Shown: one piece after another, positions 43,596-59,779 of the stretch
How positions within the stretch are numbered: position 1 is the first letter of the stretch
How the letters are laid out: each line of letters begins with the position of its first letter
Assembly: GCF_000226115.1 (NCBI RefSeq)
Contig: NC_016457.1
Coordinates: 4,402,001 to 4,466,000, forward strand
DNA: 64,000 nucleotides
Reading direction: 5' to 3'
Origin: Thermothielavioides terrestris NRRL 8126
Lineage: Eukaryota > Ascomycota > Sordariomycetes > Sordariales > Chaetomiaceae
Made by a program: the position numbers and the translations under genes
The notes under the pieces: generated by a model
Databases searched by the model: none
Told to the model about the DNA's origin: nothing
The model's input: the letters and a program-made list of their open reading frames with translations, nothing else

Positions 43596-43793
43596 TGACA
43601 CGCTATAGCGAGCTGCGAGGTGTGGATGCAACGGTGGGATCGTAGTAGAGTATTGGAATGCAAAGAGAGTGCGTTGTTTTAGTACAAAGGAGAGCTAAAG
43701 ACTGAACAGAGCGTGGTATATATACATCTAGGAGTGGGGAACTATGGCCAGTGCGCTGTGCCAAGCTCTGAGCTCCTTACCCCTGACGTGACA
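43596..43793 (-). repeat. 3' LTR of the RIP-degraded copia element
   Basis: 198 bp, the less mutated of the pair, preceded by AACTG. Confidence 0.93.
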
Positions 43794-44013
43794 CACCCCC
43801 TAGTTGTTTAATAGAGCGCCTGAATATGTGCGAGTTGAACAACTGAACTGCGAAAAAACTAGAATATAGGAAATTCTTATAAACAGTAGGTTGTATAGGA
43901 GTAGGTTGCGTAAGGCTATAAGAAATTCTGAAGCGCGATTCTAGCTAATTAGAGCGCTTAGATCTGGGGGAGGTATAAATTCCTGCTAGTAGGAGCTCAA
44001 GCTTCCTTCTTCC

Positions 44014-44021
44014 TATATATA
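44014..44021 (+). promoter_or_regulatory. Candidate TATA box for the antisense gene
   Basis: TATATAT(A) about 75 bp upstream of ATG 44092, on the strand opposite gag-pol, inside the element. In TA-rich sequence this can be chance, but the position suits an internal promoter. Confidence 0.3.
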
Positions 44022-44091
44022 TCCTCTTGTTTATATACGTAGTAGCTACTACTACTACTATTCCTAGCTCCCTAGAGTGTGTGAGACCACT

Positions 44092-45102
44092 ATGCCTCTA
44101 TACTTCGATATCTTCTTAGACAAATTGCCTATACCTTCGCCTACCCCTTTAGAGGAGGGTAACAGTGCTAAAGAGCTTGTAGTAGAACCTACTACCCTAT
44201 ATACTGCTTCTAAAGAGCTTGCTACGCCTTCTTCTAACTAGCGTCGCGGTCCCCTAGTCGAGTGAGTTATATACTCTTCCTTTTAGCTTACTGCTATATC
44301 GCTCTAATATACTCCTTAGTTATATACTATAAATGACTATAAAGTATAAGATCCTATACCTAGGTTGTATATACGCTACTTTTATAGGCTTCTACAATAG
44401 AACCTACTATAACTATAATGGCTATAGTATATACTACTAGTACTGTAAACGCTTTAACTATAGCTATAAGCCAATCCTACCTACTATTGTAAAGAAGGTA
44501 TAAGCTTTGACTATAGCTATTAACGACTTCGACTAGAAGGTGAGTCTTTACTATCCGCTACTCTATACTCCCTATCTAATATCGAATAGGCTACAAAGAA
44601 GATTCGTTCTATACTTTATATGCTTTTAAACGATCTTTAAGAGGTCGAGGAGGAGGGAGAGCAGGAGAATACGGATATAGCAGAGCCAGTGAAGGAGTAG
44701 CCTTAGTAGTAGGTGTAGGAGTAGGCGTAGAAGGTCCCTATAGTCGCCTAGGGTAGAGCCCTAGATGACCCCCTTGATTTTACGCCTATAGCGTTGATAG
44801 AGAGTAAGGCGTAGGAGATACTCTCTAAGTAGGTAGAGAGCAATAAATTGGTTGATAATTGGGAACTAGAGTAGATCGTTGTATAGACAATAGAGCTAGT
44901 AGAGCGATTAGAGATATAGGCGAAGATCCTTTGGCTTTAGGGAAAGGCGGCGATAATAGAGCTTATTAATCGCTAGAATATATAGGGCGAGAGTATAGAA
45001 TAGCAGCAGTAGATAGTCTTTATAAAGAAGATAGTTGACTCCTCTACTCTTTTTTTACCTAACGTATATTTTAAAAGTTCAATAGAGTGTAGAAGTGCTT
45101 GA
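44092..45102 (+). pseudogene. Antisense, intron-containing accessory gene relic in copia
   Basis: Three exons, 44092-44261, 44320-44539 and 44590-45102 (about 300 codons). Intron 1: GTGAGT donor, CTAAT branch, CTCCTTAG acceptor, phase 2. Intron 2: GTGAGT donor, CTAAT branch, CGAATAG acceptor, phase 0. The frame stays in register through both junctions and is broken only by TAG/TAA until a TGA at 45100-45102. Exon 2 has YLGC, then Tyr 13 residues later, then Y-x2-C, matching the Cys spacing of the intact gene at 58037-58950 if Tyr stands for Cys. After the phase-0 intron comes KKIRSILYMLLNDL and then an acidic tract, again as in the intact gene. It ends tail to tail with pol, overlapping it by about 30 nt. 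Function unknown. Confidence 0.7.
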
Positions 45103-48100
45103 ACTTCTGCTTCGAAAGCTGTTTCGTTAAACCGTTTATAGGCATCTATATAGTAGGGAGGTAGAGCACGTCGAACTACTTGTTCTAATACTCCTAGCGA
45201 AGCTATATATTATAAATATCTATATAGTGTAGGCAAGTATTGATCTTTGTATACTCTCCTACTATAAGCTGAATCGTTTACTGATTATTATAGAAGATCC
45301 TCTAAAGCTCTTTAATCTCGAATACAAGGTCCCTAAACAAGCGCTTTAGGGCGATTGTCTTAGCCGCAGTAAGCGATAGAGCTTTCAACTCTGTCTTAGT
45401 AGAAGATATAGTAACAGTATCTTGCTATATAGCCTTCTAGGAGATCAACCCTCTAAAGAGCATTATAATATAGCCCTATAAAGAGCGTTGTATATCTAGA
45501 TCATTGCTATATAATACGTTAGACGTAATCTAGAGTATCTAGTAAACACCTTTACCCCTATACTATATACTAAGGAAGCGTATAGTATATAGATACTAAA
45601 TAACTTGTTTTACTACTTTGATATACTCTAGTCTTAGATTCGTTAGGAACTAGGAGAGCTTTATAGCTATAAACATAACGTCTAGTTGGATTATAATTAA
45701 AGAGTAGAGGATTAAGTCTACAAGCTTTTAGTATAGTTTGACCTATTTAAGGGACGCCTCTCCTTTGAACTTACGAAGCTCCTCTATAAGAAGAGGGATA
45801 GCTAGAGCGCTTATAATATCGGAGAGACTATATTTCTTTACAATCTTCTTGATATACTAGTTGTATACGAGCTAGATCTTATATATTCTATAGTTATAGA
45901 TAACTCTAATTCTAAGGAAGTGCTTAACATTGCCCTACTTATATACCTTGTACTTCGCTTTGATACCCTTTATAATACGCTTTATAGCTATAGCGTTATC
46001 TCGATAGTAAACTACTAAGAAGTTGTTAATATAGAAGATAAGGATTATCTTCTTCTTAGGGTTAAGGAATAAGCAAAGTTCTTCTACGGAGGGTTATAAG
46101 CTAAGCTCTTTAAGAGTACTATAGAACTTATTGTACTATAGAAGTGGTAAGTCCTTTAGCTTATAGAGAGCCTTTAGAAGCTCTATATAGATCCTTAGTT
46201 TTTTAAATCTATCTAAAAGCTTATAAGTCACCTACTTTGTATCTAGCCTCTTTACGTTTAGGAATATTTACTTGATATTAAACTGCTTTACTTCGAGGTC
46301 AAAGTACGTTGTAAGTGCTATAACGATACGAAAAGAGCGTATAGCGAGGGTAGCTGTATATATGTTCGCGATATTAGTAGTATCTTATAGATCGCCTTGT
46401 ATATAGATATATGCCTTGTACTTCTTGAGGTTACTATCCTTGTTAAGCTTGTAGTCGAACACCTATTTTAGGGGCAGAGGCCGCGTTTTCATATACTCTC
46501 GTTTAATCTCTCGCTATATTCCTTTGCTTGTTAGATTATAGATCTCCTTGTATATAGCCGCCTTGAACTTCTTCCTATATTTGTAGTTCTCTAAGTCTCT
46601 CTAGCTCTTTGGGAGAGGGGGGAGCTCGGTGTTGTAGTATATCGTTGGTATCTAGCTAGCGGTAGTAGTAAATACTGTATATAGGGTTTAGAACGACTTT
46701 AGGAAGAGCGTCTTAATACCTTCCTAAGACGTAGGGAAGAGCGTTTTGTTACTATTGTAGGCTTCCTAGGGAGTAGGATCTAGGTAATTAGTCTAGAACC
46801 TTAACCCTAGGTTTTCCTATATTTCTAACGACTTAATAAAGAAAATATATATACGCTCTAAAGCTGTACTTAGAGCTATATTCTTATATACTTTTATAGA
46901 AGGCTTCCGAATTTGTATACTCCTTCTTATAGGTATAAGTAGCTCCTTAAGTTTATATTATAGTTTTAGTACGCTTAGTACTAGTTTATTAGTCGAAGGT
47001 TACGTTTATAGAGCTTTATACTTTATAGGCTAAGCTTTCTACTCCGCTATATATTCTACTATATTATAGAATATATCCTCTTCTTTACTTTATAGAGCTA
47101 GGGGCTCTATAGGCGGAGATACTTTATAGTCGCTTTATAGAGCTAGGTGCTTTATAGGTAGAGAAGCCTTATATTCGCTTTTAGGGGTAGCGCTTTGTAG
47201 GACGGCTATTGTTGGCCTAAGGTCCCTAGATACTCTACTAGTCTCTAGAAGAGCATTAGAATTATCGACTAGACCCCTATTTCCATTATTACTTCCGTTT
47301 ATAAGCTCTTTCTATAGCTAAGCCTATAGTTCCAATGATATTTTAGGGGTTAAGAGTCTACTTTGCGCCTATACTTCCCCTACTTCTAAGTCTTAACCTA
47401 GTAGTATACTCTTACGTTTAGGAACTATAGTGATAGACTCTAGCATTGGTCCTCTATACTTAAGTTCGTAGAGCGTTCGAAGAATCGACCTAGCGTCCTA
47501 GGTCTCTTTAACCCTCTTGTCTAAGTGCTCTGCTATATCCTTGACAATAGCAACTTTATAAGCTAGAAGCTCTTCCTTATCTAGATAATAAAAGGTCCTC
47601 TCGTTAAATGTTATATTCCTTGTTATAATAACCTTGTTGAGCTTAGGCACCTAGATATAGTAAATGTTAGATACTCTATATCTAACTAGGTACTTGATTC
47701 GCCTATATAGCTATACTTTAAATTCTCTCTTCCAATGCCTAGCCTTACGCTCTTTATCTAAGGGGTATACTCTATAGCTATATACAAAGATCCTAGACTA
47801 GTTGGAGCGTAGATCCGCCGTTAGCGTTTAGTAGAAGGTCGGTTCCTACTAGCGAAAGTAGTTCTTAAACTAGGAGTAGAGCACCTTGTTAGGGCTCTAA
47901 AGACTGTGAGCATAGCTAGGCGAGATAGTATATAAGAAGGCCATTACCTTTATACCCTCTAGTTAGAGCTTTGTAGGTAGGTTCGTGTTAATGAGTATCT
48001 TTATACTCTTTAGCTATAAGACTTATCCTATATACTCTAAAGCTCTATTTAGCTATAGTGTATATATTAGTATAAGCTCTAAGTCGATGCCTTCGTTGTA

Positions 48101-50239
48101 TACCTAGAGCTAGTAAACTGTTGGTTAGTAATCTTCTAGTGCGATAACTCCTATATCGTTGTTCTAGTAGATCTTATAGACGTTGAGTCCCTACTGCTAT
48201 TTAACCTAGCGTTCAAAAGCTCTAATAGTGTTAAAGAGCTTAGTTTAACTTTTGTTAGAGAGTGTAAAAGCCTAGATCCGTCCATTGAATTTGTCCTTGA
48301 TCGTAAAGAGGTACTAGGATCTATTAAACCTAGGAGGGAATAAGAAGAGGTCCTAGGAGATGCGCTAGAACGGCTATAAGGCGCGATACTTTGTTTTATA
48401 AAGCGTATTATACTCCCTAGTATATAATAGAGTATATACCTTGTATTCGATTGTCGGTGTTCCTTAGATCTTAACGTTCTTTACGCTCTACGCTAATGCC
48501 TAAAGAGCTCTTTGACCTAGATGTCTAGATCTTTTGTACTAGAGCTCCTTAGTATCTTCTTTCTCTTAAGGCATATATAACGTATACGACCTTATATTAT
48601 CCTTATAAACAACTGTATTTACTGTTACTAGGCCTATAAAGCTTTATAAAGGTTAGAGAATATAAAAGTAAGAGGAAAGGTTCTTCGATTCGAGGAAAAC
48701 TATATTGAACTTACAAACTAACTGCTTAACCTTTATACTCTTTTTAAGCGTTCTACACTATAGAGAGTAGTCTAGACCTAAATACTAGATACTAACTATA
48801 TATAGAGTGGTCTCTAATATAATATTAGTGTAAAAGCCCTCTACTATAGCAATATTCTTTAAGTAGAAGTCTATAGTTCCTTTCCCCTACTCTCTATCTA
48901 GCACTCTTTTTATAATACGCTCTCCTCTTCCTAAAATAGGAAAAGTGGTAGTGCCTACTTCTATATAGTCACTGTCTTCTAATAGTACGAAGGTGCTAGG
49001 AACTAAGAGCTTTTTGTCGTTGACGATATATAGAGTAGTATAATTGTCGAGGAGAATGCTTTAAGAGAGCTAGTAGGTAATAGTAGTTAAGAATATAAGT
49101 AGGTAGTAAGCTCCTTTATCTAAGAGGCTTAGGTCGATAATAGTATAGACGATTTTATTAGAAGAAGCTAACCTAAAGTTCCTTTGCTCTATAGAGCTAG
49201 AGCTATACTACTTTTAGAGGCTCTTCTAAAGGGAATTCTACTTTAGTTCGTTGAGGCACTTTCTAATCTTAGTAATCTATACTTCTAAGAGCTTATAGCA
49301 GCCTTTCTCTATCTCGGTAATTACTGTCTAGAGAAACTAGTACTCTACTAGCTTCTATCTATACTTGCTATTAGCTTTATAGGGGTATAAGTAGAGCCTC
49401 GAGCTATAAGAGCCTATATTATCTATAGAACTATTGCCTTAAGCTACTTTTAAAGAGGTAAATATACTATAGCTAAGCCCTTTAGTAGCAGTGTTGTCGA
49501 TCCGAATGCTAAGGCGAGCGCTTAGCTCTTCGAGAGTAGGAATTAGGTGCCCTTAGGCCTTGAGTACCTTGATCTTAGAGAGCTAGTGACGAGCCTAGTC
49601 TAGGGTAATCTAGTAACCAACCACCTCGATAAGGTGTTTAGATGCTCTAGGTCCAACTACTTTGGGGATGTCGAAGCTCTTTGTATATAGGTACACCTTG
49701 TTCTAAAAGTAGTACCACTTATATAGGTTGATACCTACTCTATACGCCTCTTATAGTACTGTTATATATTGTTAAGCAGCTAAATCTTCAACGAGAGCGT
49801 CGGTAGGTATAAACTACTTGTAGAGCTTACGAATAAGAGCTTAGGGACTGCTAAGTCTAGCGTTCAAAATGACGATATATATAGCGTTGAGTAGAGGTTA
49901 GTAAATAGAGTATATAATCTACTAAAGGATAAACGAATATAACTTTATCCTACTCTCCTAGATAGCTATAAGTACAAGGTATTCCTTATATATAGCTTTA
50001 AGCTTAGTAGCAACCTCTTGTTTAGTAGGAGCTAGGGCTTGGCCTATAGGGATACCTAATTCCTTAGTACGCTTCTTACAAAGCTCTTTAACTGCTTTAT
50101 CCTTTAAAGGAACTTTTAGTCGCTTATCCTAAGGCTCGTCGGGAGTATCTAGATTATATTTGTCCTAGATACTATTGCTTATAGCTATAAGCTTAAGCTC
50201 TATAAACCACTTAGTCCAATCTGCATAGGACTGGAGCAT
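45071..50239 (-). pseudogene. copia gag-pol relic
   Basis: The minus frame starts at ATG 50239 (MLQSYADWTKWFIELKLIA, a copia gag start) and ends with GLTKQLSKQKFKHFYTLL then a stop at 45071-45073, the standard copia RNase H end. The RT box at 46022-46033 reads YINN for YVDD, both Asp codons hit by G-to-A. Gln and Trp codons are widely replaced by TAG/TAA. In copia order integrase precedes RT, consistent with the layout here. Confidence 0.85.
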
Positions 50240-50361
50240 AATGGTTAAGCTGCTCTTAATAGTCGTTATATTGAGGTGTAGAGTATGAGAAAAGGAGAGA
50301 GAGAGAGAGCTTGCTATAGGTTACTAGCTATATGCAATTATAGAGCGCCTAGGCTTATAAT

Positions 50362-50559
50362 TGATATACTATAGCGAGCTGCGAGGTGTGGATATAACGG
50401 TGGGATCGTAGTAGAGTATTAGAATGCAAAGAGAGTACGTTGTTTTAGTACAAGGGAGAGCTAAAGACTGAATAGAGTATAGTATATATATATCTAGGAG
50501 TAGGGAACTATGGCTAGTGCGCTGTGCTAAGCTCTGAGCCCCTTACCCCTAACGTGACA
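50362..50559 (-). repeat. 5' LTR of the RIP-degraded copia element
   Basis: 198 bp, direct repeat of 43596-43793, followed by AACTG. Confidence 0.93.
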
Positions 50560-52220: not shown

Positions 52221-52402
52221 TGTCGCGTGCTAGTGCACACGTGACTCTATCTGCCAGGCTCCCTGCGCTCAGGGGGCACATGTCAGCTCTGCCCACACAT
52301 GTATATAGACCTCGGCGCTCCTCCCACCCAGCTTGAGAGGAGCACCTCTCTCAATACACATGCCTCTGCATCCTGCATGGCCCCACTTCGCTGCTCTTCT
52401 CA
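52221..52402 (+). repeat. 5' LTR of the intact copia element
   Basis: 182 bp, TGTCGCG...CTTCTCA. It contains CACGTG (52239), a CCCTGCGCTCAGGG hairpin (52261) and a TATATA box (52302-52307). Confidence 0.97.
52302..52307 (+). promoter_or_regulatory. LTR TATA box
   Basis: TATATA within the 5' LTR, about 278 bp upstream of the gag-pol ATG, in otherwise GC-rich DNA; the same box occurs in the 3' LTR at 59679-59684. Confidence 0.6.
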
Positions 52403-52414
52403 GTTATGAGCCCG
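52403..52414 (+). other. Primer-binding site (initiator-Met half-tRNA type)
   Basis: GTTATGAGCCCG immediately follows the 5' LTR. It is complementary to the CAU anticodon loop and stem of initiator tRNA-Met, as in Drosophila copia, which is primed by an internally cleaved tRNA. It is not complementary to a tRNA 3' end. Confidence 0.7.
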
Positions 52415-52579
52415 GTTCGCGCACAACACTCATAACAGCGGTGTAGCCCAGTTGGGGCCATCCTTCTTCTTTTCTCCAACAACCACTTCCAGTTTTCTCG
52501 ATCGTCAACAACTCCCACAAGTTCACATCACCCCCATCGTTCAGTCTGAACAACGCAGCACACCTCAGTTTGCTTCAAG

Positions 52580-55500
52580 ATGACACTCGAAACTGAGAAA
52601 ACCGTCACCGTTGCTGTTGCAGCGCTTCCAACCCTCGACAGCCCCAAGGACTGGCCAAGATGGATCTCTGCTGTTCGCCAAGAGGCCAACAACCTGCGTG
52701 TCTGGCACATCATCGACCCAGACACCGAGCTCGCCACCGAGGCTGAGATGCTCGGCCTTCCTGTGCAGCCCACCCAGGGTGCGGCACGTCAGGCGGTCCA
52801 GGACCGCCATCTTCAGGCGTGGCACACTGCACTGCAAGCCTGGAAGGCAGCCGATCCCACCACCCGTGGCGAGGAACCTCAGTCAACCAATCCTACTGAG
52901 GAGGAGATCCGCCGTGAATTCCTCAAGCTGTGCGAGGCGTTCTCGAAGTCCGCCATCGACACTGCGGCGTTCCGTGCCGTCAACAAGCTCCGCGAGATGA
53001 TCAACGTGTCTGTCAGCGACCGCTACGCACACACCGCACACGACATCATGGAGGCCGAGAACGTCACCGGCACACGCGGGTTTATACAGACGCTGCGCAA
53101 GATTATCGCACCCTCCAACAGCGCTACTTTCACTGCGCTTGCCGAGGAGTACGCAACTGTCCTTGCCAGAGGCAGCCAGAGCGGCGTCGAACCCAGGACC
53201 TGGATTCTCGAGTACATGTCGGTCCTCCACCGCGCAAGGGCGGCCAACATCGCCGCAGTCACCGACGCAACAGCCGTCACCACATTCCTCAAGACTGTGC
53301 AGAGACGCTTGGATCCAGAGTGGGCGACTCGCATGCTGAAGGATATCAGTGTGACTGAGAAGCTCGGCGGCAAAGGACCAACCCTTCTCGACTTGGCTCT
53401 CTCACTCGAGGCGATCCTCCAGGCTGAAGCGGTGGTCCACCCGAAGCCTGGAGCCTACCCCGTGCTTCCAGGAGCGCAGAACGGTCAGAAGGGCAGTCAG
53501 AAGCGCAAGAAGAACCGCGACTGCCCGTGCAAGCCGAAGACTTTTCGCCACTGGTGGTTTCCCTCGGAATGTCGGCAACTTCGGTACGCTCTGACAGGGG
53601 AATCCCTGAACGGCGTGACGCTCCCAAACGACGCGGTGAATGCAGTGCGCCAACGATTCGCCAAGGAGCGCTGGAACGACCTTCGAGTGGAGCTCCAGAA
53701 GCTCGGTTGGAAGATCCAGAACGCATCGTCAAACGCCAAGACCACTAGTTCCAATAGTGGCGCGGGTCCTTCATTTCCGGGAGCGCTCCAGGTGCACGCT
53801 GTCATCGACCCAGCGATCGCAAGCGAGCTCGAAGGAGCGCGTGGCGTGTTCGCATCTCTCGAGTTTGGCCCACACCCGCTCAGCAAGTGCATTCTGTTTG
53901 ACAACTGTGGAGCGGTCAATCTCGTCAATGACAGGGCTCTCCTTGTCCCTGGCACGTTCGTCAAGACGAGCGGTGAGACTGTTGAGGCAGGCACCACATC
54001 CTTCCCAATCTCTGGCCGCGGCAAATGGATCATCAAGAACGTTTTGAACGGCGCGCGCGGCCCGAACACTGAGGACCTTGTCATAGACAACGTTGCTGTC
54101 GTCGAGGGCTTTCACGTCAACATTGTCTCTGAGAGACGCCTTCGAGCGCAGGGCGCTTGGTACTGCGGTCTGGATTGCACGCTGCGTTGGGGAACTTTGG
54201 AGAAGAGTATTGTACTCAGGCAGCTGGTCGAGAAGTTCAACCTGACCTTCTTGCAATACAATGCTCTTTCCTCCTACTCTGATGCCCTTCGGGTGCTCCC
54301 CAGAAGCTTTGCCGGACTTGTGACTTTGAGCGCTGCAGTTGTGAAGAACTTTGGGAGGAGCAGGCCCTCCAAGGACCCGCTCCCAGAGAGAGAAGACCCA
54401 GCTGCTCTCTGGCACATCAGATCTGGTCATCTGAGTTCAGAGGCGCTGGAACATCTCGTCTTGAACGCCAGAGGTGTGCGGATTCGCGGGCCTCGCAGAC
54501 TGGAATGCGAGGTATGCGCGCAGGCATACGCGGAACAGGTTATTTCGCGCCGCCCACCATCGAAGCCGTCACCACGCCCATTTTGGAGGGTCTCTTGGGA
54601 CCTGTTCGACTTTCCGAGGGCACTTGACGGCTCGAACTGGCTGCTGGTCATCAAGGACGAGTACAGTGGGAAGCTTTTCGCGACTCCACTCATACGCAAG
54701 ACGCACGACAGTGTGTACGATGAGCTCGTCCGCTTCGAACGCTGGGTGAAACGCCAATTCGGGCTGCCCATCTGCAAGATCAGGCAGGATGGCGACACCA
54801 GTGTCATTGGCATCAAGGGATACACAGCGTACGAGCTCTGGGCGCAGGAGCAGGGCATCGACTTGGAGGTTACGCCTTCGGATACCAAGGAGCCCAACGG
54901 CGGTTCAGAACGCGCAGGCAAAGAACTTATCACAAAGAGCCTTGCAATGCTCACGGGCGCCGGACTTCCTCAGAACCTGTGGCCAGAGTCGACGGTTGCA
55001 GCTGCGTACTTGCACGGCATAAGCCCAAGTCGCGCTCGCAACTACCGCTCACCGAACGAGGTGCTCGACTCTTGGTTCAGACACTGGTTTCGCTGGTATC
55101 AGCCCGGTCTCGTGCATTCCCTGACTGCCGACCTGCGCCCTAACTGGGGCGGCGTTTATGCGTACGGCTGCCGAGCGTACCCGCTGACGAAGGAACGCGA
55201 AAAGGGGATTGAGAGGCGTGCTGGGAAGGTCAAGCCCAGAGCGCACATCGGGTATCTTGTTGGATACAGGGCGTCCAACATTTACCGCATCTGGGTACCG
55301 AAACTCAGGAAGGTCATCACAACGCGCAACGTGACCTTTGACGAACGCACGTTCTACCGGGAGGGAGAGGAGCAGCTTGATGCTCAATCGGTGGCAGTCG
55401 CCAGAAAGGTTGTTGAGCTCATCGAACTCCCCATAGAGCCTCGGGACGCCGAGGCAGTGCCGTTCGGAGTTACAGATGCCCATGAAGACCCAGTGACGGT

Positions 55501-57949
55501 TCCCGGCTCTCCAGGACATCTGGGGGGTGTGACTGAACGGGAACCGGAAGGGCAGGCTCCTCCCCACTCTCCATCCTGTCTGGGGGGTGCGGAAGTACTC
55601 GAGCATCGCGGCCAGAGTTCGGGTGAGGAGCCCACTGGTGGTCTTTACACTCCAGAACCAACACCGGAGCCGCGCCAGGAACGCCCGGACGGTTTTGGAG
55701 GGAGCGGCCCCCCTGCTGATCACGGTGCTAGCAGTGACAGCAGACCGGTGGGAACTGCATCATCGGAGGCCCCTGATGCAGTTATCGGAGACGCCAGTAG
55801 CAGCGTCGCTGGCGGCACAACTAGGAGTGCCAGCCAGGGCAGCACGACGGCAAGTGCTGCCGCAGTCGATACTCCTAGCAGTGAAGAGGAGGTCGACCGC
55901 CCTGGCGATCAGCCAGAGGCTCCAGACGACTGGGAAGACGCCTCAAACCATGGTTCTCAGCCTGATTCTGGAACACCCGCAGCCACGCCAGCGAGGGAGA
56001 AGCGCAAGTACGTGCGCAAGGTATACGGACCACCAACTCGTTACTCAAGACGGATCCGTAGACAGTCTCCCGGCGGCGGTGCAGGCGGAAGCGGCGGTCT
56101 GGTGTGCTTCGCAGCCCCCATGTACCATGAGGAGAGCATCGACGTACCAGATCAGCACGCGTGGCATTCGTTCAGCCACACATTTTTGGATGACCCTGTA
56201 ATCGCTCTGCAGGAGGGCGACAGCATCCAGCACCGCACATTGCATGCGGTTTTCGCGGCGGCAGTCCGCCAACATCGTGACGCGCGTCCTGGGGCAACGC
56301 CAAGCAGGCCCCGGGTGCATTTTGACGACCTCGCCAAGCTTCCTAAGCGCTGGAGGGATCTCGCCAACCACCCTCAAGGGCCCGAGTTCATCAAAGCGGC
56401 TGAGGAAGAGATTCGCAATCTCGTCAACAGGAAGACATGGCGCAAGATTCGGCGCGAGACCTTCAAAGGAAGACCACTCCCTCTGAAGTGGGTTTTCGTC
56501 TACAAGTTCGATCAGAATGGCAACCTCGAGAAGTGCAAGTCTCGCATCTGCGTTCGAGGCGACCTTCAGGAGCTCACTACTCTGCAAAGCACTTATGCAG
56601 CCACACTCGCAGCGCGCTCGTTCCGCACAATGATGGCTATCGCCGCGCAGTTTGATCTTGAGGTCAAGCAGTTCGACGTAGCGCAGGCGTTCTTGAATGC
56701 GGACCTGCCTGAGGGTGTTGTTTGCGAGATGCCTGAGGGGTTCGAAGAGCCTGGATTTCTTGTGGAACTGCAGAGAGCTCTGTACGGCTTGCGAGAGTCT
56801 CCGTTGCTCTGGTACCGAGAGTTCTCCGGCACACTTCGGAAGCTCGGCCTCACAGCTTCGCCTGAGGAGCCATGCTTGTTCTTCGATCGCCAACGGCGCG
56901 TGCTCGTGCTGTTCTACGTGGACGACTACCTAGTCTTCTACCACAGAGACCACGCGGAGACAGCTCAGAGGATCATCGACGCTCTGAAAGCGAAGTACGA
57001 AGTGCACGAAAAGGGGGACGTGGCTTGGTTCCTGGGCATCAGGGTGATCCGCGACCGCGCGCAACGCAAGATCTGGCTCTGCCTTGACCAGTACATCGAG
57101 AAGATTGCGAAGCGCTTCGGTCTCGCGGATCAAATCACCTTTCCAAGCATCCCTCTCCCTGTAATGGAACTCCGCAAGTTCACTGGCACTGCCACTCGAG
57201 CGCAGATCAGGCTGTTCCAGGAGCTTGTTGGATCGCTACTCTACGCCGCGGTCGTACTGCGCGCGGAGGTCGCGTTCCCGGCATCGTTGCTCTCGCACTT
57301 CCTGACGAACCCCTCGGGGACACACATTGATGCTGCAAAGCATGCAATCTCCTACCTGTTTGGCACGCGCTTCCTCGCTATTCAGTTCGGGGGTGTGCCG
57401 CAGGATGCTGCTCCCACGCAAATCTTGCTCATCGCAGGGGACGCGTCGCATGCGGATGATCCTGATACGCGCAGGTCGTCACAAGGCTATCTCATCTCTC
57501 TGTTCGGTGGGCTCGTTCATTGGAAGGCTGCGCGCCAAGATACAGTCACCACCTCGTCTACGGAGGCGGAGCTCCTCGCTCTGTCCACCGCAGCGCGGGA
57601 GACAATGGCGTTCAAGCGTTTCCTCAGCGACCTGCAACTTGAGCTGGGTGTGCCTTGGACTGTGTTCTGTGACAACACGCAGACCATCCGGCTCGTGGTG
57701 GGAGAGAACGAACGCATCAGCACTCGCCTGCGTCATGTTGACATCCACAACATGTGGCTGCGTCAGGAACACGCGAAGGGATCTTTCGAGGTCGCGTACT
57801 TGCCAACTGCTGAGATGCCTGCAGATGGGCTTACGAAGGTGTTGACTCGCCAGAAGTTCGAGCACTTCAGGGAGCTCCTCAACCTGCAGGATGTGCGTCA
57901 TATGGTGCAGGGAGACGATCAGGGGGACAGGAACGCAAGGCTTGAGTAA
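52580..57949 (+). CDS. copia gag-pol polyprotein, intact
   Basis: One frame of 1789 aa without frameshift or stop. Gag with a W-x2-W-type N-terminus (residues 1-290) and a variant knuckle CPC...H...C near 315. Protease-like region near 441 reads FDNCGAVNLVND, where copia elements usually have DSGA or DTGA. GAG-pre-integrase WHIRSGH (611) and CEVC give the HHCC zinc site. Integrase core: Asp in SWDLFDF (674), Asp in RQDGDTSV, Glu in EPNGGSERAGKE. A Ser/Gly/Pro-rich linker (about 970-1160) follows. RT has WVFVYKFDQNG, VKQFDVAQAFLNA and YVDDYLVF (1446). RNase H has AGDASHAD, SSTEAELLAL, FCDNT and the C-terminal DGLTKVL. It makes the particle, protease, integrase and RT for cDNA synthesis and insertion. 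The upstream leader is 177 nt. Confidence 0.97.
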   Translation: MTLETEKTVTVAVAALPTLDSPKDWPRWISAVRQEANNLRVWHIIDPDTELATEAEMLGLPVQPTQGAARQAVQDRHLQAWHTALQAWKAADPTTRGEEPQSTNPTEEEIRREFLKLCEAFSKSAIDTAAFRAVNKLREMINVSVSDRYAHTAHDIMEAENVTGTRGFIQTLRKIIAPSNSATFTALAEEYATVLARGSQSGVEPRTWILEYMSVLHRARAANIAAVTDATAVTTFLKTVQRRLDPEWATRMLKDISVTEKLGGKGPTLLDLALSLEAILQAEAVVHPKPGAYPVLPGAQNGQKGSQKRKKNRDCPCKPKTFRHWWFPSECRQLRYALTGESLNGVTLPNDAVNAVRQRFAKERWNDLRVELQKLGWKIQNASSNAKTTSSNSGAGPSFPGALQVHAVIDPAIASELEGARGVFASLEFGPHPLSKCILFDNCGAVNLVNDRALLVPGTFVKTSGETVEAGTTSFPISGRGKWIIKNVLNGARGPNTEDLVIDNVAVVEGFHVNIVSERRLRAQGAWYCGLDCTLRWGTLEKSIVLRQLVEKFNLTFLQYNALSSYSDALRVLPRSFAGLVTLSAAVVKNFGRSRPSKDPLPEREDPAALWHIRSGHLSSEALEHLVLNARGVRIRGPRRLECEVCAQAYAEQVISRRPPSKPSPRPFWRVSWDLFDFPRALDGSNWLLVIKDEYSGKLFATPLIRKTHDSVYDELVRFERWVKRQFGLPICKIRQDGDTSVIGIKGYTAYELWAQEQGIDLEVTPSDTKEPNGGSERAGKELITKSLAMLTGAGLPQNLWPESTVAAAYLHGISPSRARNYRSPNEVLDSWFRHWFRWYQPGLVHSLTADLRPNWGGVYAYGCRAYPLTKEREKGIERRAGKVKPRAHIGYLVGYRASNIYRIWVPKLRKVITTRNVTFDERTFYREGEEQLDAQSVAVARKVVELIELPIEPRDAEAVPFGVTDAHEDPVTVPGSPGHLGGVTEREPEGQAPPHSPSCLGGAEVLEHRGQSSGEEPTGGLYTPEPTPEPRQERPDGFGGSGPPADHGASSDSRPVGTASSEAPDAVIGDASSSVAGGTTRSASQGSTTASAAAVDTPSSEEEVDRPGDQPEAPDDWEDASNHGSQPDSGTPAATPAREKRKYVRKVYGPPTRYSRRIRRQSPGGGAGGSGGLVCFAAPMYHEESIDVPDQHAWHSFSHTFLDDPVIALQEGDSIQHRTLHAVFAAAVRQHRDARPGATPSRPRVHFDDLAKLPKRWRDLANHPQGPEFIKAAEEEIRNLVNRKTWRKIRRETFKGRPLPLKWVFVYKFDQNGNLEKCKSRICVRGDLQELTTLQSTYAATLAARSFRTMMAIAAQFDLEVKQFDVAQAFLNADLPEGVVCEMPEGFEEPGFLVELQRALYGLRESPLLWYREFSGTLRKLGLTASPEEPCLFFDRQRRVLVLFYVDDYLVFYHRDHAETAQRIIDALKAKYEVHEKGDVAWFLGIRVIRDRAQRKIWLCLDQYIEKIAKRFGLADQITFPSIPLPVMELRKFTGTATRAQIRLFQELVGSLLYAAVVLRAEVAFPASLLSHFLTNPSGTHIDAAKHAISYLFGTRFLAIQFGGVPQDAAPTQILLIAGDASHADDPDTRRSSQGYLISLFGGLVHWKAARQDTVTTSSTEAELLALSTAARETMAFKRFLSDLQLELGVPWTVFCDNTQTIRLVVGENERISTRLRHVDIHNMWLRQEHAKGSFEVAYLPTAEMPADGLTKVLTRQKFEHFRELLNLQDVRHMVQGDDQGDRNARLE
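55520..55589 (+). other. Two internal copies of the polypurine-tract decamer
   Basis: CTGGGGGGTG occurs at 55520-55529 and 55580-55589, 60 bp apart and in the linker between integrase and RT, identical to the tract next to the 3' LTR. A fourth copy is at 57992-58001, after the pol stop. Confidence 0.75.
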
Positions 57950-58036
57950 AAAACAAACTAAACACAGGAGCGCACGCCGGCGCAAAACAGACTGGGGGGT
58001 GCCCGCACCCGCGAAACAACAAACAACAACGCGGAA

Positions 58037-58950
58037 CTACTTGCCACCCTTCTTCTTCTTGGGAGTCATGGCGGCCAGCACCGCCGCCGCCACACCACGC
58101 GCCAGCGCCTCCGGGTCAAAGCCCGGAGCAGCCTCCTCCTCGCTCTCGTCCTCATCCTCGTCCTCCTCCTCGCTCTCCTCCTTCTTGGCCTTCTTGGCCT
58201 TCTTGGACTTCTTGGTGGGCGCGGCCGCCTTTGCCTTGCCCTTGCCCTTGCCCTTGGCGGGCGCGGGCGCGCGCTCGTCGTCATCGTCGTCGTCATCCTC
58301 GGCGTCGGCGTCCTCGCCCTCCATGGCGAGGAGGGCGCGCAGGGTGGCGCGCAGCGTCTTCTGGTCCTACCACACACAGTCAGACTAGCTCTTTTCCTTT
58401 GTCTTTTCATTTGTACTCACGAGATTGGCCTTGGGCTCCTGGCGCCCCTGCATCAGGGCCAGGAAGTGCTTGGCGGCGGGGAGCACACTCGCGGGGCTGA
58501 TTCATCAGTACCGTGCGCCTTGCAACTGTGCTGACAGACTTACATGGAGCGACACTTCTTGCCGCGCGCACAGCGCGCGCACCGGGCCGCTTTGCCGGGG
58601 GCCTCCCGGCACTCCCCAGAGCTCTTGCCGCGCATGGCGGACTTCAGGCAACCCAGGCAGGGCTGCTCTCTCAGGGCGCCCTCCTCCTCCTCATCCTCCG
58701 AAGAGGAGGAGGAGGAGGAGGGGGGCGCCGCACGCTTGGAGGGGGTCTTCGGCGTGGCGGGGGTCCTGCTGCAAGTGTCAGAGACGCGGATGTACGCGCC
58801 GCGCCAGTCGGGCAGATTGTGGTGTGCTCACTTCTTGCTGGCGCCAGCGCCAGCCTTGGTGGGGGTGGCCGGGAGCGGGGGAGGCTTGTTCTTGGCCGCC
58901 TTGGCGGCGCGGGCCTTCTCGAGAGCGGCGAGGCGAGCAGAGGACGGCAT
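58037..58950 (-). CDS. Antisense four-exon accessory gene of the copia element
   Basis: Four exons, 58950-58832, 58768-58544, 58496-58421 and 58366-58037, encode 249 aa. Introns of 63, 47 and 54 nt have donors GTGAGC, GTAAGT, GTGAGT, branch-like CTGAC/CTGAT, and acceptors TTGCAG (or the next CAG), ATCAG and GGTAG; phases 2, 2 and 0 keep one open frame. Exon 1 is Ala/Lys-rich. Exon 2 has a Ser/Glu run and then a Cys-rich motif, CLGC at its start and RCARCARGKKC at its end (CX2CX12CX9CX2CX5C), probably zinc-binding. Exon 4 has KTLRATLRALLAMEG, an acidic run, a Lys/Ala-rich basic stretch, a second acidic run and a KKKKGGK end. A CAA-rich leader precedes the ATG, and a possible 42-nt 5' UTR intron lies at 59006-59047. 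The gene converges on pol with 87 nt between stops. It shares organisation with the relic at 44092-45102. Function unknown; nucleic-acid or chromatin binding is a guess. Confidence 0.75.
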
Positions 58951-59099
58951 GGTTGTTGTTGTTGATGTTGTTGTTGTTGCTGATGCTGCTGCTGTTGCTC
59001 GCGGTCTGCAGAGGAAGAGTTCGGGAGATGGTTTGAGGCGCACTCACCATGATTAAATACTTCCAGGAGTGCAGCCATCGACCGGCCTGCGGCACTGCG

Positions 59100-59597
59100 G
59101 TATTGTCTGCATGGCGCGAATGCAACAATGGGTAGCAATGGTGGGCGTGCATTCAAGACGTTGGGCAACAAAGGCCACAATGGCACACATGCGAATGATC
59201 GCAATGCTCAATTGCGCAACCTGCACCCACAATCGAGGCGGCACGATTCAAGATACGCGCCTGAATGGAGGATGGGGATGGAACGCGCTGCGCAATTGGG
59301 AACTGCGCACAATGCGATCAATGGCGCTCGCAACAATGCCAACGACAGCGCCCCTGAATGTCAACTTTGGCGCCCCTGGGTCTGACCGCATTCAGCGCAG
59401 CACGCAATTCGCCAACGCACGCGCCACAACGCGTACACAATGGCGCGCGGACAACTTGCACAATGGCGGCGGCTGCGCGCAATGGTGGGATCAATACCGG
59501 AGGCCACAGTTCAATGCGCCTGGCAGTGCGAGCTCCAGAGTCAGTGCCCAGCATGCGTGTTCCACAGACAGCCTCCTGAGAGTCTGTCTGGGGGGTG
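59100..59597. other. CAATG-rich spacer before the 3' LTR
   Basis: About 500 bp between the antisense gene and the 3' LTR. I count roughly eleven CAATG words on plus between 59120 and 59520, often as CAACAATG, CACAATGG or GCAATGG, where well under one would be expected by chance. Open frames here are short and differ in all frames, so I do not call a gene. It would include the promoter of the antisense gene, and the 3' region of the genomic RNA. Confidence 0.55.
59588..59597 (+). other. 3' polypurine tract
   Basis: CTGGGGGGTG immediately upstream of the 3' LTR start (TGTCGCG, 59598), the expected place for the plus-strand DNA primer. Confidence 0.8.
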
Positions 59598-59779
59598 TGT
59601 CGCGTGCTAGTGCACACGTGACTCTATCTGCCAGGCTCCCTGCGCTCAGGGGGCACATGTCAGCTCTGCCCACACATGTATATAGACCTCGGCGCTCCTC
59701 CCACCCAGCTTGAGAGGAGCACCTCTCTCAATACACATGCCTCTGCATCCTGCATGGCCCCACTTCGCTGCTCTTCTCA
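59598..59779 (+). repeat. 3' LTR of the intact copia element
   Basis: 182 bp, identical to 52221-52402 over its whole length, followed by GATAC. Confidence 0.97.

What the first reader, a model, noticed from the sequence alone, without database searches (positions are those of the whole stretch)
44092..45102. A second, older copia family has the same antisense, intron-bearing gene
Seen: in the 43596-50559 element, on the strand opposite pol and between pol and the 3' LTR, a three-exon relic shows a phase-2 intron before and a phase-0 intron after a Cys-type domain. YLGC, Tyr at +13, and Y-x2-C ending at +26 align without gaps with CLGC, C+13 and C-x2-C of the intact gene. After the phase-0 intron both have K-x2-R-x3-L-x2-LL and then an acidic run. 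LTRs differ in length (198 against 182) and sequence. Inference: the gene is an old, conserved part of a copia lineage, not a chance capture. I know of no description, but could not search.
Basis: partly seen in the sequence, partly recalled or inferred. Interest (0 to 1): 0.93.

Follow-up and report, generated by a model that had tools for sequence, protein, structure and literature searches.

The report
Antisense spliced gene in fungal copia
Two distant families of a fungal jumping gene appear to carry the same extra gene, written backwards and split by introns, which suggests an old built-in accessory gene of one copia lineage rather than a chance pick-up.

Summary
The 43596-50559 element is a RIP-mutated copia element (AACTG duplication, 198-nt LTRs), pol on the minus strand; the three plus-strand exons lie between pol and the 3' LTR. 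In 20 of 41 matches examined, the claimed frames hold none of the 10 certain TGA stops found in the other plus frames. Cys occurs at codons 3, 16, 26, 29, 36 (and two others) against 0, 3, 16, 26, 29, 35 in the intact gene; both have K-x2-R-x2-L-x2-LL after the phase-0 intron. Placement tests give about 1 in 1000 or better; tblastn and whole-exon profiles on damaged copies find nothing. The intact gene is under purifying selection, weaker than pol. RT trees put both families in one clade (100/100), on opposite sides of a weakly supported deepest fork, with Mycothermus and Remersonia elements, so the gene is probably as old as that clade; other species were not examined. Antisense accessory genes are known in plant elements and Botrytis Boty (brtn); none in fungal Copia turned up in ten literature searches. 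Organism: Thermothielavioides terrestris. Function, a nuclear zinc-binding regulator, is inferred. The de-RIP consensus was referred.

The parts
43596..50559 (-). older, RIP-mutated copia element; pol on the minus strand
   Evidence: AACTG duplication and LTR comparison; CpA observed/expected 0.26; tblastn with the intact pol 41-43%
43596..43793 (.). 3' LTR (198 nt) of the older element
50362..50559 (.). 5' LTR (198 nt) of the older element
45062..49150 (-). pol of the older element, outer limits of two tblastn matches
44092..44261 (+). relic exon 1, ends in phase 2
   Evidence: a stop at 1 of 56 codons in any of 20 copies; donor GTRAGT 17 of 20
44262..44319 (+). relic intron 1 (phase 2)
   Evidence: donor as above; phase-fitting acceptor TAG in 16 of 20; a second phase-fitting AG ends at 44286
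44320..44539 (+). relic exon 2 with the Cys domain (codon 0 at 44357)
   Evidence: Cys seen at codons 3, 16, 26, 29, 36, also at -4 and 31; placement test
44540..44589 (+). relic intron 2 (phase 0)
   Evidence: donor GTRAGT 19 of 20; acceptor TAG 44587-44589 read in the sequence
44590..45102 (+). relic exon 3, starts with K-x2-R-x2-L-x2-LL and an acidic run; true end unknown
   Evidence: no certain TGA stop in frame; 9 codons are stops in all 20 copies
52221..59779 (+). intact copia element, 182-nt LTRs, duplication GATAC
   Evidence: bounds read from the ends printed
52580..57949 (+). gag-pol of the intact element (1789 aa)
   Evidence: RVT_2 4e-32
58832..58950 (-). intact accessory gene, exon 1
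58544..58765 (-). intact accessory gene, exon 2, six-Cys domain
   Evidence: the NCBI model THITE_2120895 = P0001 starts inside this exon and splices introns 2 and 3 in the same way
58421..58496 (-). intact accessory gene, exon 3
   Evidence: corrected by one base; P0001
58037..58366 (-). intact accessory gene, exon 4, helix then acidic and Lys-rich tail
   Evidence: P0001
59126..59516 (-). array of 11 CATTG, all on the gene strand, upstream of the intact accessory gene

Best explanation
An accessory gene inherited with the element since near the base of one fungal copia clade. It sits antisense to gag-pol between pol and the 3' LTR, is interrupted by introns, and encodes a small protein with a six-Cys, probably zinc-binding domain, a short helix and an acidic, Lys-rich tail. 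Shown: position, orientation, intron-interrupted frames, multi-copy presence, purifying selection in the intact family, and local similarity between the two families. Inferred: transcription from a promoter between the 3' LTR and the gene; splicing; that the antisense orientation lets introns persist, because the genomic RNA that is reverse-transcribed carries only their complement; and that the protein acts in the nucleus on the element's own DNA, RNA or chromatin, most likely as a regulator of its expression or of integration, as proposed for plant antisense proteins and retroviral antisense factors.
For: Copies: 19 places at 98-99% (the window's own included) and 19 at 55-74% for exon 4 of the intact gene, plus shorter fragments; 41 matches of the older region. 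Selection: transversions fixed in at least 5 of 7 copies of an older subfamily against the intact gene fall 9/5/19 on codon positions, N 20: S 13, expected N 0.80, p 0.007; exon indels are 3, 6, 9 or 18 nt, intron indels 1 or 4. Similarity of the two families: Cys seen at 4 of 6 positions (5 of 6 with Tyr), against 1 of 5297 other placements with 4 and none with 5, placements of the same frame in 44300-44420 left out; helix first of 5452 placements averaged over the copies, domain fourth of 5302; 39 of 36712 single-copy placements in four other loci reach 15, the window copy's helix score summed by hand. RT: both families in an 11-row clade, 100/100. The public gene model P0001 splices introns 2 and 3 as here.
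Against: hhalign on the unaltered exons finds nothing; on the trimmed domain P 0.0064, probability 5.9%. tblastn of the intact protein does not hit the relic at E up to 10 or 50. In the window copy alone at least four other placements outscore the helix, and the domain is not among the best four. The domain-plus-helix pair ranks 3 of 5221, so two chance pairs score higher. Cys is also seen at two codons that do not fit, and the sixth is off by one. Exon 1 and the tail show no similarity by eye. No homologue outside T. terrestris was found. The gene is less constrained than pol (0.38 against 0.07, the latter from one copy). The indels lie partly in trinucleotide-rich runs, where steps of three are expected anyway. 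No expression data.
Confidence: 0.6

Rival explanations
1. Chance resemblance: RIP turns Cys into Tyr and leaves Tyr-rich, low-complexity frames in which a six-position pattern and a short K/R/L helix can be found.
For: Whole-exon profiles and tblastn show no match; two other placement pairs score higher; exon 3's frame has as many all-copy stops as the other frames.
Against: Cys, not only Tyr, is seen at the predicted codons in some copies; placement tests; frames free of certain TGA stops; same strand, order, position and intron phase.
Confidence: 0.13
2. Gene exchange: one family acquired the gene from the other by recombination inside the genome, so it is not as old as the clade.
For: Both families are multi-copy in one genome.
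Against: The shared part is about as diverged as pol (5 of 14 in the helix, read by eye; pol 41-43%), and intron content differs; recent exchange would leave more similarity.
Confidence: 0.12
3. Independent capture of a host Cys-rich gene (DUF3716-like) by each family.
For: DUF3716 has a similar six-Cys order; hhalign of the intact domain with 8 host sequences gives P 0.005, probability 7%; 10 places in the genome match PF12511 at E up to 1e-3.
Against: With the related copies added the same comparison gives P 0.14. PF12511 does not list either gene at E up to 10, nor do Pfam scans. With Cys positions kept, 23 of 300 shuffles score as well; with full shuffling 3 of 300. Same place and orientation in both would need a coincidence.
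Confidence: 0.08
4. The antisense transcript, not the protein, is the functional product (for example double-stranded RNA control of the element).
For: Antisense transcription with a regulatory role is proposed for other elements.
Against: Codon-level constraint in the intact family.
Confidence: 0.07

Closest known systems
brtn, antisense gene of Boty-like elements (Botrytis cinerea, Sclerotinia); Zhao et al. 2011, not read, seen only as cited in PMC7264820, PMC8365987 and PMC4227169
   Same: Filamentous ascomycete; additional antisense gene between pol and 3' LTR of an LTR element
   Different: The host element is filed as Gypsy and carries a chromodomain (passages of PMC8365987 and PMC4227169); the sequence of brtn was not compared here and its intron content was not seen
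Plant aORF-3R genes: Grande gene23, RIRE2, Retand (TRP28 domain), PvRetro13
   Same: Antisense, between pol and 3' LTR, present in most copies, protein proposed to be nuclear or regulatory (PMC7264820 sections 5-7, PMC11963269 passages)
   Different: Plants; unrelated domains by name; the word intron does not occur in the review's main text
HBZ of HTLV-1 and APH-2 of HTLV-2
   Same: Antisense gene of a retroelement, protein with nuclear localization (passage of PMC11963269)
   Different: Retroviruses; leucine-zipper type protein (recalled), no Cys domain (recalled)
DUF3716 (PF12511) proteins of fungi
   Same: C-x2-C ... C ... C-x2-C ... C order
   Different: Not recovered in sequence tests; weak beyond the Cys order; host genes

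Membership tests
Ty1/copia elements | RVT_2-type reverse transcriptase downstream of integrase-side domains, flanked by LTRs | tested here: met
   intact: RVT_2 4e-32, SH3_retrovirus 1.8e-14, gag_pre-integrs 0.00097 (below its cut-off); older: RVT_2 57.3 bits at C1:4447794, LTRs and duplication
Antisense additional ORF (aORF-3R) | coding region between pol and 3' LTR, antisense to gag-pol | tested here: met
Antisense additional ORF (aORF-3R) | present in most copies of the family with conservation | tested here: met
   19 near-identical and 19 diverged places; 41 matches; N/S test
One gene family shared by the two elements | significant sequence similarity of the proteins | tested here: inconclusive
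   placement tests in favour, tblastn and profile tests on damaged exons negative or weak
One gene family shared by the two elements | shared intron positions | tested here: inconclusive
   phase-0 intron before the helix and phase-2 intron before the Cys domain in both; distance of the latter to the domain differs; the intact gene has one more intron
DUF3716 (PF12511) | score above the curated cut-off | tested here: not met
brtn of Boty | sequence homology with BRTN | not tested

The most novel reading that the evidence does not exclude
A whole clade of fungal copia elements, across several genera, carries one ancient, spliced, antisense accessory gene encoding a zinc-binding nuclear protein that recognises a repeated site array (CATTG in the intact family) in the element and controls its transcription or integration.
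Probability: 0.25. Interest if true: 0.8.

Novelty: new variant of a known kind. Interest (0 to 1): 0.58.

Why it matters
Antisense accessory genes have been reported in plant and Botrytis elements, and the review read here calls their functions unknown. An intron-bearing one shared by two distant copia families would show how such a gene is kept through retrotransposition. The codon-level evidence says that the protein is selected, and the fungus offers 19 near-identical places in which expression and function can be tested.

Tried and rejected
A first alignment of the older copies mixed strands and was discarded; one search oriented them. DUF3716 as the identity of the domain: not supported beyond Cys order. 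Structure of exon 2 alone: mean pLDDT 57.7, not searched further. Four other copia loci of the genome (L039-L042, one copy each) gave no convincing antisense match: tblastn (the best, L041, E 0.08, lies on the pol strand) and ungapped scans, in which these loci reach raw scores as high as the older window copy does; single copies, so weak evidence of absence. A first RT tree paired the older family with L043, judged an effect of shared RIP, and was rebuilt without L043, L039 and L042; the older row stays a long branch. The post-domain stretch VLPAAKHFLALMQGR was not supported (60 of 5445 placements as good). The CATTG sites change less than their surroundings in the older subfamily, but not significantly (1 of 55 against 29 of 365, p 0.074, sites chosen in the intact copy). 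In one search the rows for exon 3 were printed two bases out of frame; and later used the frame from 44590.

Full report
Setting. The window is C1:4402001-4466000 of a 36,912,256-base, six-contig genome; a protein identical to part of the intact accessory gene is named as from Thermothielavioides terrestris NRRL 8126. The window holds an intact copia element (52221-59779) and, 1.7 kb away, the older RIP-mutated one (43596-50559). In the older element CpA is at 0.26 of expectation, against 1.33 in the intact one. In both, a second gene lies between pol and the 3' LTR on the strand opposite pol.

Is the relic real? One search found 41 matches to the older antisense region. I examined the 20 for which loci were returned, the window's own included. 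Over 1031 nt they differ at 461 columns by transitions only and at 16 by transversions: one burst of nearly identical copies, then RIP. A frame test that ordinary RIP does not mimic counts codon columns that hold only TGA or TAA, with TGA in at least one copy. The claimed exon frames have 0 of 300, the other two plus frames 10 of 599; for pol the figures are 0 of 490 and 15 of 979. Donor sites are GTRAGT in 17 and 19 of 20. Against this, exon 2 has one codon that is a stop in all 20 copies, and exon 3 has nine from 44590 on, no fewer than the other frames (8 and 9), so its end is unknown.

Is it the same gene? The intact gene has Cys at 0, 3, 16, 26, 29 and 35 of its domain. In the older copies codon 0 is Tyr in 20 of 20, and Cys itself is seen at 3 (6 of 20), 16 (1), 26 (4), 29 (10) and 36 (2); it is also seen at -4 and 31 (2 each), which do not fit. 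Of 5297 other placements in six frames of the same alignment (those of the same frame in 44300-44420 left out), one reaches four seen Cys and none reaches five with Tyr counted. After the phase-0 intron the first 14 residues of the next exon score best of 5452 placements, averaged over the copies, and the first 26 best of 5380; the domain itself, with Tyr penalised, ranks 4 of 5302. The joint placement ranks 3 of 5221. By hand the window copy's own helix scores 15 in BLOSUM62; 39 of 36712 placements in four other loci reach that, and in the window copy alone at least four other placements outscore it. tblastn of the intact protein does not find the relic; profile comparison of whole damaged exons gives nothing and of the trimmed domain P 0.0064 with 5.9% probability. 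I put homology at about 0.85, because independent local signals agree in strand, order, position and intron phase.

Is the gene selected? The intact family has 19 places at 98-99% and 19 at 55-74% for exon 4, besides shorter fragments; I read 18 of the latter 19. Eleven are RIP-mutated copies of the same family (1-12 transversions) and seven form an older subfamily 35-49 transversions away. Transversions fixed in at least 5 of those 7 are 9, 5 and 19 by codon position, 20 nonsynonymous to 13 synonymous, p 0.007; exon indels are 3, 6, 9 or 18 nt, intron indels 1 or 4. In the 19 rows (intact and 18 relatives) the three donors are GT in 18, 1 and 6, the rest AT as RIP would give, and the acceptors AG in 17, 19 and 19. 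The ratio per possible change is 0.38, against 0.07 for pol, the latter from one copy over RT and RNase H: a real but looser constraint. The public gene model P0001 starts inside exon 2 and splices introns 2 and 3 exactly as here.

How old? The pol search scored 7992 candidates and listed 120 of 765 relatives. A careful tree of 46 rows places the intact and older families in an 11-row clade, 100/100, kept in 100% of 200 bootstrap trees; the group was named after the first tree. The older family stands with P0005-P0007 (94/80) and the intact one with P0004, P0008 and P0013 (98/92), on the two sides of the clade's deepest fork, whose branches are weak (94/80 and 92/76). Holding INT, OLD and P0004 together is rejected, p 0.015. 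Members with an organism name are Mycothermus (P0006, P0013) and Remersonia (P0008). The older row is long and biased by RIP, so its exact place is unsure. If the gene is shared by descent it was present near the base of this clade. This predicts it in those species, which I could not examine: pattern scans of viral contigs and genome contigs confirmed no relative, and the two protein searches with the accessory gene found only T. terrestris (where only the 7993 candidates sharing most words were scored, 55 candidates).

What does it do? No Pfam family reaches its cut-off; the weak ones lie in the acidic, Lys-rich part or tail. The domain has the order of Cys of DUF3716, but with Cys positions kept 23 of 300 shuffles score as well. 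I infer a zinc-binding nuclear protein acting on the element. Upstream of the intact gene 11 CATTG stand on one strand and none on the other; the most frequent 5-mer in 200 shuffles reached 9 at most, and the rest of the element has 0-2 per strand and 500 nt. The motif was chosen after looking. Most sites persist in the older subfamily apart from RIP changes; two read CGTTR in 3 and 4 of 7 copies and single copies lack others. They may be binding sites or promoter elements; the older element shows no such array by eye.

Known? Reviews describe antisense genes between pol and the 3' LTR in plants (PMC11963269, passages; PMC7264820, sections 5-7 and passages) and in Boty of Botrytis and Sclerotinia (brtn; the 2011 paper itself not read). 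In a survey of fungal Copia diversity (PMC5445492, passages) the words antisense, additional ORF and intron do not occur; in LTR Retrotransposons in Fungi (PMC3248453, passages) antisense does not occur. Ten literature searches, of which I saw titles and the start of abstracts, named no antisense gene in a fungal Copia element; one listed paper on antisense RNAs from transposons in Blumeria (PMC10648671) was not read. The library is partial. Hence a new variant of a known kind.

Noticed in passing
window 59126-59516 (minus strand): Eleven CATTG, none reversed, between the 3' LTR and the intact accessory gene; in 10 older copies read, most sites differ only by RIP-type changes, two sites read CGTTR in 3 and 4 of 7 subfamily copies.
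   Followed up: partly
window 52580-57949: Gag part holds a variant knuckle, C-x-C-x6-H-x6-C; C317, H324 and C331 are nearly invariant in 22 related polyproteins.
   Followed up: no
window 59069-59713 (+): A 214-aa open frame on the sense strand over the region upstream of the accessory gene; perhaps an effect of composition.
   Followed up: no
L019-L038 at window 44708: A 12-nt gap in exon 3 is present in 13 of 20 older copies.
   Followed up: no
G000, RVT_2 places: At least three further copia groups lie far from this clade: C1:9516912 with C3:856763 (L040, L041, 80% alike), C2:5090719 (L039), C1:249306 (L042).
   Followed up: partly
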